DNA of 64,000 bases. Source: Rhodococcus sp. HNM0563. GTDB taxonomy: Bacteria; Actinomycetota; Actinomycetes; Mycobacteriales; Mycobacteriaceae. Position 1 is the first letter of the stretch. Each line of letters starts with the position of its first letter. Positions 23,680 to 31,699 of this stretch are shown here, piece by piece. The stretch covers positions 248,001-312,000 of the forward strand of contig NZ_JAASAF010000004.1 of the NCBI RefSeq assembly GCF_012726195.1, written 5' to 3'. The translations under genes were made by a program, and so were the position numbers. Under the pieces are notes generated by a model. It saw only the letters and a list, made by a program, of their open reading frames with translations. It did not search any database and was not told the DNA's origin.

Positions 23680-24471
23680 ATGGACCACGGCGCCGTCTCG
23701 GCGACACAATCGATTCATCCCTCCCGGAGCGCCGGCGATGCGCTCGCTGCCTCTGAATTAGCCACTGCAGCAGGGGAATTACTCCTCGGCCTCCGGCGCG
23801 ATACCGAGGTTGCGGACGCGGACCTGGATCAGCTCCGGCGGATGGGAGATCTGCGGAGTCACGACTACCTCACCCTCGCACTGGCGGAGAGGTTTCCCGA
23901 CGACTCGGTGCTCTCGGAAGAGGGTGCCGATGATCATGCGCGGCTCCGAGCGGATCGCGTCTGGATCGTCGACCCGCTCGACGGTACCCGCGAGTTCGGT
24001 GAGCACGGCCGCACCGACTGGGCCGTGCACGTCGCCCTTGTCGAGAACGGACTGCTGACGGTCGGAGCGGTCGCGATGCCCGCCCTCGGGGTCACCTACT
24101 CGACGGGTGATACTCCCGCGACCCTCTCGCCGTTACCGCGAACTCCTCGCGTGGCCGTGTCCCGCACCCGCAAACCGGAACCCGTCCTCGCCCTCGCCCG
24201 CGCGCTCGGCGGCGAACTCGTGGAGATGGGATCGGCCGGCGCGAAAGCCATGGCCGTCGTGCGCGGCGAGGTCGATATCTATGCCCATACCGGAGGCCAG
24301 TTCGAGTGGGATTCGGCGGCACCCGTAGCGGTTGCTCGCGCCGCAGGCCTGCACGTCTCACGGATCGACGGCTCCGAACCCCGCTACAACCAGAAGGACC
24401 CTTGGATGCCCGACATGTTGATCTGCCGCCCCGAGTTGGCCGGCCAAGCATTGGAGGTGCTCGGACGATGA
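23680..24471 (+). CDS. cysQ: 3'(2'),5'-bisphosphate nucleotidase CysQ-like (PAP phosphatase)
   Basis: Inositol-monophosphatase-fold enzyme of 263 residues that converts PAP, the by-product of sulfotransferases, to AMP, and can hydrolyse PAPS. The metal site is seen in LSEEGADD (Glu80, Glu81) and VDPLDGTREF (Asp98, Asp101, Gly102, Thr103), with WDSAAPVAVARAAG as the C-terminal metal segment. ATG 23680 lies just behind the operator pair; the frame open to 23629 runs through the operator. The stop overlaps cysD (ATGA). The first gene of the sulfation operon is thus the PAP-removal enzyme. Confidence 0.9.
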   Translation: MDHGAVSATQSIHPSRSAGDALAASELATAAGELLLGLRRDTEVADADLDQLRRMGDLRSHDYLTLALAERFPDDSVLSEEGADDHARLRADRVWIVDPLDGTREFGEHGRTDWAVHVALVENGLLTVGAVAMPALGVTYSTGDTPATLSPLPRTPRVAVSRTRKPEPVLALARALGGELVEMGSAGAKAMAVVRGEVDIYAHTGGQFEWDSAAPVAVARAAGLHVSRIDGSEPRYNQKDPWMPDMLICRPELAGQALEVLGR

Positions 24472-25388
24472 GCAGTCCCACCGTCGGTGAGAACCTGACA
24501 CACCTGGAGCGTCTCGAGGCCGAGAGCATCCATATCATGCGGGAAGCAGTCGCCGAGAGCGAGAACCCGGTGATGTTGTACTCGGTCGGCAAGGACAGCG
24601 CGGTGATGCTGCACCTGGCGCGCAAGGCGTTCTACCCGTCACGTCTGCCCTTCCCACTGCTCCACGTCGACACCACGTGGAAGTTTCGAGAGATGTACAA
24701 GCTGCGTGACGAGACCGCTGCCGCAGGTGATCTCGACCTGGTCGTCTACCAGAACCCGGAATGTGTCGAGAAGGGCATCAACCCGTTCACGCACGGATCG
24801 GCGACCCACACCGACATGTGGAAGACCGAAGGTCTCAAGCAAGCCCTCGACCTCCACAAGTTCGACGCCGCATTCGGTGGAGCCCGCCGCGACGAAGAGA
24901 AGTCCCGCGCCAAGGAGCGCGTCTTCTCGATCCGCTCCGCCGAGCACCGCTGGGATCCGAAACAGCAGCGGCCCGAACTGTGGCGCATGTACAACGTCCG
25001 CAAATCGCCCGGTGAAACCCTGCGGGTGTTCCCCCTGTCGAACTGGACCGAACTCGATGTGTGGGAATACATCAGGCAGGAGAACATTCCGATCGTTCCG
25101 CTCTATTTCGCGGCGAAGCGACCAGTCGTCGAGCGCGACGGCACCCTGATCATGGTCGACGACGACCGGATGCCCCTGCTGCCCGGGGAGGTTCCTGAGC
25201 TGAAGAGCGTGCGCTTCCGCACCCTCGGTTGCTACCCGCTCACCGGCGCCGTCGAATCCACGGCCGAGACGTTGACCGACATCATCCAGGAAATGTTGCT
25301 GACCACTACCTCCGAGCGCCAGGGTCGCGTGATCGACCACGACTCCAGCGCCTCGATGGAGAAGAAGAAGCAGGAAGGGTACTTCTGA
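24468..25388 (+). CDS. cysD: Sulfate adenylyltransferase subunit 2
   Basis: PP-loop ATP pyrophosphatase subunit of ATP sulfurylase, 306 residues, that forms APS from sulfate and ATP. The PP-loop YSVGKDSAV lies at residues 38-46, and the family segments GGARRDEEKSRAKER and FPLSNWTELDVWEYI follow. Start ATG 24468 overlaps the cysQ stop, and its own stop shares one base with the cysNC start (TGATG). It works as a heterodimer with the CysN half of the next gene product. Confidence 0.97.
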   Translation: MSSPTVGENLTHLERLEAESIHIMREAVAESENPVMLYSVGKDSAVMLHLARKAFYPSRLPFPLLHVDTTWKFREMYKLRDETAAAGDLDLVVYQNPECVEKGINPFTHGSATHTDMWKTEGLKQALDLHKFDAAFGGARRDEEKSRAKERVFSIRSAEHRWDPKQQRPELWRMYNVRKSPGETLRVFPLSNWTELDVWEYIRQENIPIVPLYFAAKRPVVERDGTLIMVDDDRMPLLPGEVPELKSVRFRTLGCYPLTGAVESTAETLTDIIQEMLLTTTSERQGRVIDHDSSASMEKKKQEGYF

Positions 25389-30767: not shown

Positions 30768-30796
30768 GCTTGGTGTCCACGAAGAGATCAGGGCCC

Positions 30797-31699
30797 ATGA
30801 AATGGGCACTGCCCGCGGCGATGATCGAAGCGGGCGACCTGCCGGAGTTCGCCCGCGTCGCCGACGAATGCGGCTACGACGCGATTGCCTTGCCCGACTC
30901 GGTGTTCTACCCCGAGACGGTCTCGGCCGATTATCCGTATTCACCCGATGGTAAGAGGATGTGGGCTCCCGAGACACCGATGCCGGATCCCTTCATCGCG
31001 ATGACCGCGATGGCTGCCGTCACGCAGCGAGTGCGATTCTACACAAATGTACTGAAGCTGCCGCTGCGCGATCCGTTGCTCACCGCCAAACAGGTGGCGA
31101 CGATGGCGGTGATGTCGGGGAACCGCATCGCCGTCGGGATCGGATTATCGTGGATACCAGAGGAATTCGAGTTCACCGGCACCGAGATGCGCACTCGTGG
31201 TGCTCGCACCGACGAAGCCATCGCGATCGTGAAGGCGGTGTGTTCCGGCGAAGGTCCACAGTGGGTCGAATTCCATGGCAAGCATTACGAATTCGAACGG
31301 CTGATGATCAGCCCTGCACCCGACCGGCCTGTTCCGATCTACGGTGGAGGGCACAGTGAGGCAGCTCTGCGGCGTGCGGCGCGACTGGGCGACGGCTGGA
31401 TCTCGGTCAACACCGATGTCGCGCAGCTGACGTCGGCGATCGGGCGGCTGTCGGAGCTGCGTTCCGAATTCGGCCGCGCGGATGTTCCGTTCGAGATCGA
31501 TGTATCGCCCACCGATGTCTCCGACGTCGACGGGTACCGTCGTTTGGCCGGCATCGGGGTCACCCGGGTGCGAGTGGCGCCGTGGCGCATGTACGGCGTC
31601 GACCCGTCCGATCCGCAGGCCCGGCTCGACGCCATTCGCCGGTTCGCGGACGACGTGATCTTCCCTCACGCTTCGGCTGCGATCAGTTCGCTCTCGTAG
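30797..31699 (+). CDS. LLM-class (F420- or FMN-dependent) oxidoreductase
   Basis: Luciferase-like monooxygenase-fold oxidoreductase of 300 residues. LPDSVFYPETV, VRFYTNVLKLPLRDPLLTAKQVATM and GIGLSWIPEEFE are standard core segments, close to F420-dependent mycobacterial members such as Rv3520c, which I recall as belonging to the cholesterol regulon. ATG 30797 gives the usual MKWALP start; GTG 30764, overlapping the DUF1214 stop as GTGA, is an alternative that adds 11 residues. Last gene of the sulfation operon. Confidence 0.87.
   Translation: MKWALPAAMIEAGDLPEFARVADECGYDAIALPDSVFYPETVSADYPYSPDGKRMWAPETPMPDPFIAMTAMAAVTQRVRFYTNVLKLPLRDPLLTAKQVATMAVMSGNRIAVGIGLSWIPEEFEFTGTEMRTRGARTDEAIAIVKAVCSGEGPQWVEFHGKHYEFERLMISPAPDRPVPIYGGGHSEAALRRAARLGDGWISVNTDVAQLTSAIGRLSELRSEFGRADVPFEIDVSPTDVSDVDGYRRLAGIGVTRVRVAPWRMYGVDPSDPQARLDAIRRFADDVIFPHASAAISSLS

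What the first reader, a model, noticed from the sequence alone, without database searches (positions are those of the whole stretch)
23680..31699. Self-contained PAPS-making sulfo-conjugation operon with steroid-type enzymes
Eight same-strand genes with overlaps or gaps of 41 bases or less encode PAP phosphatase, both halves of ATP sulfurylase, APS kinase, a ketosteroid-isomerase-like protein, an SDR, a sulfotransferase, a DUF1214 protein and an LLM oxidoreductase. No PAPS reductase, sulfite reductase or sulfate importer is present, so this is not simple assimilation. Making the donor, using it and clearing PAP in one operon implies heavy flux into a sulfated product. The KSI-like and SDR enzymes point to a cyclic lipid. 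I recall similar sulfotransferase/SDR/DUF genes (Rv3529c-Rv3531c) and an LLM gene (Rv3520c) in the mycobacterial cholesterol regulon, but not with cysDNC.
Basis: partly seen in the sequence, partly recalled or inferred. Interest (0 to 1): 0.85.

Follow-up and report, generated by a model that had tools for sequence, protein, structure and literature searches.

The report
Self-contained sulfate-conjugation operon in Rhodococcus
A soil bacterium carries a switchable gene set that makes the active form of sulfate, attaches it to a small molecule (perhaps steroid-like) and clears the by-product, and related bacteria carry the same set with exchanged middle genes.

Summary
In detail: eight same-strand genes (23680-31699, gaps of 41 bases or less) encode a CysQ-like phosphatase, CysD, CysNC, a ketosteroid-isomerase-like protein, an SDR, a PF13469 sulfotransferase (Stf), a DUF1214 protein and an LLM oxidoreductase. 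The genome has a separate CysDN/APS-reductase locus for assimilation, so this operon serves sulfo-conjugation. Its Stf is a paralogue of a widespread module (DUF1214-SDR-Stf) that lies beside kshA in Mycobacterium palustre. In a family sample, an APS kinase lies within 3 kb of 14 of 14 window-type Stfs and within 16 kb of 65 of 94 others. A divergent TetR gene and a double palindrome over the promoter are conserved (20 of 22 operon loci), also in another family. KSI-SDR-Stf genes have been exchanged between operons whose CysNC and DUF1214 genes share another history. The isomerase keeps Tyr14 and Asp99, with Glu for Asp38 (19 of 19 copies). A steroid-like acceptor is plausible, not shown; the Rv3520c recall fails. 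Dedicated PAPS-plus-sulfotransferase clusters are known (Bacteroides cholesterol sulfation; Rhodococcus IGTS8), so this is a new variant of a known kind.

The parts
21380..22876 (-). DHA2-type MFS exporter gene, probably co-transcribed with tetR (43-base gap)
   Evidence: MFS_1; best NCBIfam EmrB-type efflux, below cut-off. A relative was found in 4 of the 15 other operon loci (G010, G011, G447 61%, G429 30%), so not a constant part
22920..23555 (-). TetR-family regulator, divergent
   Evidence: TetR_N E 1.8e-14; best NCBIfam KstR 42 bits, cut-off 280; a relative is in 20 of 20 operon loci (the window included)
23622..23657 (.). double palindromic operator, TCGAACATTGTTCGA (23622-23636) and TGAACAATGTTCG (23645-23657), centres 22 bp apart
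   Evidence: 20 of 22 operon loci scanned carry the double motif, once each; 0 of 10 other loci; sequences
23644..23672 (+). promoter-like TTGAAC, 17 bp, TAGAGT overlapping the right operator, 7 nt before the cysQ ATG (leaderless start inferred)
   Evidence: read from the sequence; similar arrangement visible in other operons
23680..24471 (+). CysQ-like PAP phosphatase
   Evidence: Inositol_P; best solved relative 5djf, PAP phosphatase, E 1.2e-61; below the TIGR01331 cut-off
24468..25388 (+). CysD, ATP sulfurylase small subunit
   Evidence: NF009214 above cut-off
25388..27289 (+). CysNC, ATP sulfurylase large subunit fused to APS kinase
   Evidence: NF004035 above cut-off; stretches GSVDDGKST and GLSGSGKST present
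27331..27690 (+). ketosteroid-isomerase-like SnoaL_2 protein with Tyr14, Glu38 and Asp96 (Asp99 of C. testosteroni KSI)
   Evidence: the three residues kept in 19 of 19 copies
27687..28499 (+). short-chain dehydrogenase (PRK07890 group)
   Evidence: above cut-off; 3ucx E 2e-73
28523..29668 (+). PF13469 sulfotransferase, presumably PAPS-dependent
   Evidence: E 1.2e-51; 2zq5 E 1.9e-118; G[LI]TRTG[ST]TALHRLL in 19 of 20 copies (the other is a cut segment) and [VI]RTFR[DE] in 20 of 20
29706..30767 (+). DUF1214 protein
30797..31699 (+). F420-type LLM oxidoreductase, TIGR03619 (alternative GTG start 30764)
   Evidence: above cut-off; found in 13 of 20 operon loci (the window included)

Best explanation
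This is a TetR-controlled, self-contained sulfo-conjugation operon. TetR sits on two palindromes over the -35 box and a small inducer releases it (inferred). CysD and CysNC turn sulfate into APS and then PAPS; Stf moves the sulfuryl group to a hydroxyl of a small, probably ring-shaped (steroid-like) molecule that the SDR and the KSI-like isomerase, and perhaps the F420 oxidoreductase, prepare; the CysQ-like phosphatase removes PAP. DUF1214 is a constant partner of unknown chemistry. The MFS pump may export the conjugate in some strains. Shown: gene content, order, conserved operator, linkage, conserved catalytic residues, a separate assimilation locus, exchange of the KSI-SDR-Stf genes. Inferred: enzyme activities, inducer, acceptor, export. 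My estimates: dedicated sulfo-conjugation 0.9, TetR control 0.85, steroid-like acceptor 0.45, conjugation for detoxification or catabolism rather than for a structural lipid 0.55.
For: Gene content. Assimilation elsewhere: CysH carries the three APS-reductase signatures given in PMC8557817 and passes TIGR02055 APS reductase (245 bits, cut-off 235) but not TIGR02057 PAPS reductase (166, cut-off 254); that locus's CysN has no APS kinase part. The genome's only full APS kinase domain is in this operon (one further weak match over 43 positions, E 7.7e-4). Same operon with tetR in G004, G010, G011 and 12 further genomes of the family sample. APS kinase within 3 kb of 14 of 14 window-type Stfs (about 0.03 expected under uniform placement). 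Operator in 20 of 22 operon loci, 0 of 10 others. KSI residues in 19 of 19 copies. Module 0.5 kb from kshA in M. palustre, an LLM gene and a P450 gene 6-8 kb away. On a Paraburkholderia plasmid, CysQ-CysD-CysNC (53, 76, 66% identical) follow a DUF1214-Stf-VOC stretch.
Against: No product, acceptor or activity is shown. SnoaL_2 is a fold with many chemistries, and the general base is Glu, not Asp. In Nocardioides sp. Root140 only tetR, cysD, cysNC, Stf and DUF1214 were found; no CysQ, KSI, SDR or LLM at E 1e-10, so those are not essential everywhere. MFS and LLM genes are inconstant. This operon is the genome's only PAPS source found, so it may also feed the second Stf at C52, which is not in a steroid cluster. 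KstR is about 190 kb away on the same contig. The own CysH also passes the cut-off of one model named PAPS reductase (PRK02090, 271, cut-off 154). 29 of 94 other Stfs have no APS kinase within 16 kb. In 13 of the 18 genomes with a near DUF1214 relative no cysD-cysNC pair was found beside it (three of these contigs are short). In sphingomonad plasmids DUF1214 stands without a Stf in 3 of 4 regions read.
Confidence: 0.72

Rival explanations
1. Biosynthesis of an endogenous sulfated lipid or quinone of the envelope, like the mycobacterial sulfotransferases Stf0 and Stf3 (products recalled), not conjugation of an outside compound.
For: A Stf relative (E 1e-80 or better) is present in 88 of 121 genomes of the family sample, which suits a core metabolite; the nearest solved relative is 2zq5 (its mycobacterial origin is recalled).
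Against: The window-type copy is patchy (14 of 121 genomes), sits behind a TetR switch and here beside an efflux-type MFS, has exchanged genes and occurs in a Nocardioides record: accessory rather than structural.
Confidence: 0.25
2. The acceptor is a phenol or other aromatic xenobiotic, and the KSI-like protein is a generic SnoaL-fold helper.
For: DUF1214 relatives lie in sphingomonad clusters with NTF2-like proteins, SDRs, acyl-CoA dehydrogenases and, in one, an extradiol dioxygenase; Nocardioides lacks KSI and SDR.
Against: The KSI-like protein matches ketosteroid isomerases first among solved structures, with catalytic positions kept; the M. palustre module lies beside kshA.
Confidence: 0.3
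3. The operon handles sulfite or sulfate overflow (PAPS made through reversed APS reductase, as proposed for strain IGTS8).
For: Proposed for another CysNC-CysD-Stf0 cluster in PMC8557817 (passages); a TauE-type gene follows DUF1214 in the Speluncibacter copy.
Against: KSI, SDR and LLM have no place in it; the IGTS8 cluster agrees in gene content and order with another locus, which has a Stf0-type enzyme (PF09037) and a sulfatase.
Confidence: 0.07
4. Ordinary assimilation operon with unrelated neighbours.
For: cysD and cysN family genes are assimilatory in many bacteria (general knowledge).
Against: A separate assimilation locus exists; APS kinase and Stf stay together on one strand in 14 of 14 window-type copies.
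Confidence: 0.02

Closest known systems
Bacteroides BT_0411-BT_0416 cholesterol sulfation cluster (PMC9417993, passages seen)
   Same: Putative PAPS genes next to a sulfotransferase that converts cholesterol to cholesterol sulfate; cholesterol raises expression of BT_0412 and BT_0416.
   Different: The paper takes BT_0412 as a sulfate importer; the window adds KSI, SDR, DUF1214, LLM and a TetR with double operator. How the two sulfotransferases are related in sequence was not tested.
Rhodococcus qingshengii IGTS8 CysN2C-CysD2-Stf0 cluster (PMC8557817, passages seen)
   Same: A second ATP sulfurylase fused to APS kinase, next to a sulfotransferase, apart from the assimilatory CysDN and APS reductase.
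   Different: By gene content and order it fits a third locus of the R. erythropolis group: sulfatase, cysNC (46% to the window), cysD, Stf0-family enzyme PF09037; no KSI, SDR or DUF1214 was found there.
Mycobacterial Rv3529c-Rv3530c-Rv3531c module (gene table in PMC6429209, passages; that 2zq5 is M. tuberculosis STF1 is recalled)
   Same: DUF1214-like, SDR and Stf genes; Stf about 50% identical in loci of this type; Rv3531c is listed there as predicted to be required for growth on cholesterol.
   Different: Order DUF1214-SDR-Stf, a far DUF1214 (26-35% where matched), no KSI match in the module; no CysNC in the 14.6 kb M. palustre locus, though a reading frame with a SnoaL_2 domain lies about 2.4 kb from its Stf.
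Rhizobial nodPQ-nodH (recalled, not tested)
   Same: Dedicated PAPS supply genes with a sulfotransferase.
   Different: Acceptor is a lipo-chitooligosaccharide; no KSI, SDR or DUF1214.

Membership tests
PAPS-forming complex CysD-CysNC | ATP sulfurylase halves and APS kinase domain over curated cut-offs | tested here: met
   CysD 546 (cut-off 413), CysNC 1058 (cut-off 715), apsK 255 (cut-off 139)
PAPS-forming complex CysD-CysNC | makes PAPS | not testable with these tools
   needs an assay
CysQ PAP phosphatase | over the curated CysQ score | tested here: not met
   TIGR01331 113 of 229 bits; best solved relative is a PAP phosphatase (5djf), so it is called CysQ-like
PF13469 sulfotransferase | Pfam domain over cut-off and over its whole length | tested here: met
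   176.5 bits, profile 1-216 of 216
Ketosteroid isomerase | closest to KSI sequences among solved structures | tested here: met
   4l7k E 4.6e-9, 1isk E 1.2e-8
Ketosteroid isomerase | catalytic Tyr14, Asp38, Asp99 | tested here: inconclusive
   Tyr14 and Asp99 kept, Asp38 is Glu, in 19 of 19 copies
Rv3520c-type LLM oxidoreductase | TIGR03559 over cut-off | tested here: not met
   48 of 335 bits; TIGR03619 met (206, cut-off 167)
Rv3529c-Rv3531c-type module | gene order DUF1214-SDR-Stf with the far DUF1214 type | tested here: not met
   window order is KSI-SDR-Stf-DUF1214; DUF1214 26-35% to that type
Assimilatory sulfate reduction operon | APS/PAPS reductase or sulfite reductase in the operon | tested here: not met
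   absent from the eight genes; cysH at G000:C1
KstR regulon | the regulator beside the operon is KstR | tested here: not met
   operon TetR 42 of 280 bits; KstR itself at C33:80.6 kb
KstR regulon | KstR operator in front of the operon | not tested
   no scan with the KstR motif was run
Bacteroides-type cholesterol sulfation cluster | PAPS genes adjacent to a sulfotransferase acting on steroids | tested here: inconclusive
   adjacency met; steroid activity not testable here

The most novel reading that the evidence does not exclude
A modular bacterial sulfo-conjugation system: a constant, TetR-switched PAPS supply (cysQ-cysD-cysNC) and DUF1214 protein, behind which KSI-SDR-Stf acceptor genes are swapped between species, so that each strain conjugates a different ring-shaped compound; DUF1214 would be a new conserved component of sulfation, and the isomerase a natural Glu-base ketosteroid isomerase. 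The same kind of association, with a more distant DUF1214 protein, would extend to Paraburkholderia.
Probability: 0.3. Interest if true: 0.75.

Novelty: new variant of a known kind. Interest (0 to 1): 0.58.

Why it matters
It gives a concrete genetic system for PAPS-dependent conjugation in an environmental actinobacterium, comparable to phase II sulfation in animals. It also ties the unexplained mycobacterial sulfotransferase module (Rv3529c type) to PAPS supply by gene neighbourhood in relatives: an APS kinase lies within 16 kb of 65 of 94 Stfs that are not of the window type, in 15 of 21 genus codes. The exchanged genes single out which proteins probably set acceptor choice, and DUF1214, a name found in only 1 paper of the held library, becomes testable as a sulfation partner.

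Tried and rejected
Rejected: simple assimilation (separate locus); KstR as the operon's own regulator; identity with the IGTS8 Stf0 cluster; the upstream acyl-CoA dehydrogenase, SDR, APH and quinone-reductase block as part of the system (seen as a block only in G010 and G011 among the loci). I first thought DUF1214 an obligate Stf partner: in 17 of the 18 genomes a Stf lies directly beside it, and the eighteenth, G190, ends at a contig edge; but sphingomonad plasmids break this. Fold comparison of DUF1214 gave, above the unrelated rows, only structures without a named function (6ans, VPA0735, VPA0106).

Limits: family counts come from related genomes and are not independent. assumes uniform placement and about 1.5 APS kinases per 5.2 Mb genome. 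The 29 unlinked Stfs are 8 in genus code g2, 8 in g87, 4 in g95, 2 each in g100 and g5, and 1 each in g105, g96, g1, g10 and g94; contig ends may explain some. The trees are quick trees on the best tblastn segment of each gene (20 rows; 19 for SDR), with cut rows (G010, Prescottella) kept. The clades tested with the AU test were chosen after the identities had been seen. The operator pattern missed L095 (two single sites) and L102 (one). The 10 control loci were chosen by hand from loci already held (relatives and neighbouring stretches) and are not random DNA. The gene next to cysH belongs to the nitrite/sulfite reductase family but passes no curated cut-off (best 335 of 594 bits).

Paper searches: none of the listed papers was seen to describe this operon; several listings were capped (for example 12 of 43, 20 of 38) and subscription papers are mostly missing. 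One search was made to see whether Novosphingobium ES2-1 degrades estradiol; PMC9181579 (passages) says so, and the word sulfotransferase occurs in the main text of neither it nor PMC7793797.
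Full report
Observation. Two labels need care: the CysQ falls short of the curated CysQ score (113 of 229 bits) though its best solved relative is a PAP phosphatase (5djf), and the LLM enzyme belongs to TIGR03619 (the Rv2161c type), not to the Rv3520c group.

Not assimilation. The same genome has a second set at G000:C1:439-442k: cysD (45% to the window's), a cysN without APS kinase, a CysH with the three APS-reductase signatures (CCxLRKVxPL, SIGCAPCT, KTECGLH; after PMC8557817, passages), and next to it a nitrite/sulfite-reductase-family gene. 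The CysH passes the APS reductase model TIGR02055 (245 bits, cut-off 235) and not the PAPS reductase model TIGR02057 (166, cut-off 254); it also passes PRK02090, a model named phosphoadenylyl-sulfate reductase (271, cut-off 154). Assimilation thus most likely runs from APS and does not need PAPS. The only full APS kinase domain of this genome is in the operon (one weak partial match elsewhere), so the operon may also supply the second Stf at C52.

Linkage. In the genus (18 genomes), 18 of 20 strong APS kinase matches lie within 7 kb of a Stf gene; the two misses are in a fragmented genome (G010) and in one whose Stf sits 55 bases from a contig end (G016). In a family sample of 121 genomes, 108 Stf matches (E 1e-80 or better) were in 88 genomes. 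All 14 window-type copies (75% identity or more) are within 3 kb of an APS kinase on the same strand. Of the other 94, 65 are within 16 kb, 45 of them 3.6-5.7 kb away on the opposite strand; about 0.9 of 94 would be expected under uniform placement. The 29 unlinked ones include all 8 matches of genus code g2 and all 8 of g87. In the named M. palustre locus no CysNC lies within the 14.6 kb held.

Two kinds of locus. The widespread module is DUF1214(far)-SDR-Stf, in five loci read divergent from cysD-cysNC-cysQ (L059, L087, L088, L093, L094) and, without an annotated cysQ, on a Tsukamurella tyrosinosolvens plasmid record. In M. palustre it lies 0.5 kb from kshA (KshA_C, E 7e-90), with an LLM gene and a P450 gene 6-8 kb away. 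Its own-genome copy (C52) is beside a CysQ-like gene (52%) and not in a steroid cluster. The window operon is a second, compact form: tetR, then cysQ-cysD-cysNC-KSI-SDR-Stf-DUF1214, with LLM in 13 of 20 loci. Named carriers include R. globerulus, R. erythropolis NBRC 15567, R. spelaei, R. phenolicus, Speluncibacter jeojiensis, Prescottella defluvii and Nocardioides sp. Root140; in the last no CysQ, KSI, SDR or LLM was found.

Wider kin. Of 397 genomes of the order, 18 hold a near DUF1214 relative (E 1e-60 or better). In 5 of the 18 (G000, G004, G232, G342, G374) cysD-cysNC stand beside it; in 3 others (G026, G061, G172) a CysQ-like gene does. In G232, G342 and G374, three of five genomes of family code f14 in that list, the order is tetR, cysQ (missing in G374), cysD, cysNC, DUF1214, Stf, SDR, with CysD 72-73% and CysNC 62-64% identical but Stf only 28-30%. 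On a Paraburkholderia sprentiae plasmid DUF1214-Stf-VOC-CysQ-CysD-CysN stand together: CysD 76%, CysNC 66%, CysQ 53%, Stf 33%, DUF1214 27%. The PAPS part is thus closer to these than to the other Stf-linked locus of the window's genus (CysD and CysNC 49-51%, L059 and L093).

Switch. Two palindromes, centres 22 bp apart, lie between tetR and cysQ; the right one overlaps TTGAAC, 17 bp before TAGAGT, and the ATG follows 7 nt later, which suggests a leaderless transcript. The double motif occurs once in each of 20 of 22 operon loci, the three of f14 included, and in 0 of 10 other loci (sequences).

Exchange of the middle genes. Against G011 the window's DNA is 95-100% identical over 23.1-27.0 kb, then 70-80% to about 29.7 kb, then 84-91% to about 31.5 kb; G010 and G011 are 94-100% identical from about 27.0 kb on but 79-96% before. 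In the CysNC and DUF1214 trees G000 groups with G011 and G010; in the Stf tree it groups with R. globerulus and R. erythropolis. Holding G000, G011 and G010 together is rejected for Stf (AU p 0.0037) and SDR (p 0.00015), and holding the Stf-tree group together is rejected for CysNC (p 1e-9). R. erythropolis shares 90% Stf but only 69% SDR with the window, and G437 86% SDR but 76% Stf, so Stf and SDR have also moved separately.

Isomerase. Among solved structures the KSI-like protein matches C. testosteroni-type ketosteroid isomerases best (E 5e-9 to 1e-8; the species is recalled). Tyr14 and the Asp99 equivalent are kept, and position 38 is Glu, as in the solved variant 4l7k; this holds in 19 of 19 operon copies. 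That an Asp38Glu enzyme retains some activity is recalled.

Mechanism and purpose. The parts give a full cycle: sulfate to APS to PAPS (CysD, CysNC), transfer (Stf), removal of PAP (CysQ-like), under a probably ligand-responsive repressor. The acceptor is inferred. KSI, SDR and the M. palustre neighbourhood point to steroid-like rings; the Nocardioides copy and the sphingomonad clusters with DUF1214 leave room for other ring compounds. The MFS gene behind tetR suggests export, but only some strains have it.

Known systems. Dedicated PAPS-plus-sulfotransferase clusters exist: Bacteroides BT_0411-0416 makes cholesterol sulfate (PMC9417993, passages), and R. qingshengii IGTS8 has CysN2C-CysD2-Stf0 (PMC8557817, passages), which agrees in content and order with a third, different locus of the R. 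erythropolis group. Hence new variant of a known kind; the new points are the TetR/operator-controlled set, DUF1214 as constant part, the Glu-type KSI and the exchange of middle genes.

Noticed in passing
17267-21316: Acyl-CoA dehydrogenase, SDR, APH-type phosphotransferase and quinone-reductase-like genes upstream; conserved as a block in G010 and G011 (L055, L056) but not beside the G004 copy.
   Followed up: partly
31732-33033: M48-type peptidase frame convergent with the operon; it marks the operon's downstream end.
   Followed up: no
36175-37239: A second luciferase-like (PF00296) oxidoreductase gene outside the operon.
   Followed up: no
10560-11807: A 415-aa reading frame on the minus strand with no Pfam match at E 1e-5.
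   Followed up: no
L109, L110 (third locus of the R. erythropolis group): cysD and cysNC (46% to the window) in both; in L110 also a sulfatase and a Stf0-family sulfotransferase (PF09037), the content and order published for IGTS8.
   Followed up: yes
L095, L099, L100: Extra genes after DUF1214: a family-5 solute-binding protein in R. globerulus and R. spelaei, a TauE-type exporter and a second DUF1214 gene in Speluncibacter; a sulfatase beside tetR in R. spelaei.
   Followed up: partly
L119-L122 (sphingomonad plasmids): DUF1214 relatives (42-44%) in large catabolic clusters with NTF2-like and SDR genes; on the plasmid of the estradiol degrader ES2-1 a CysQ gene lies about 6 kb away, with no Stf in the 25 kb read.
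   Followed up: partly
L074: Tsukamurella tyrosinosolvens 'plasmid 22' carries purL, cysD, cysNC and a hypothetical-SDR-Stf module; purL suggests a large secondary replicon or a misnamed chromosome piece.
   Followed up: no
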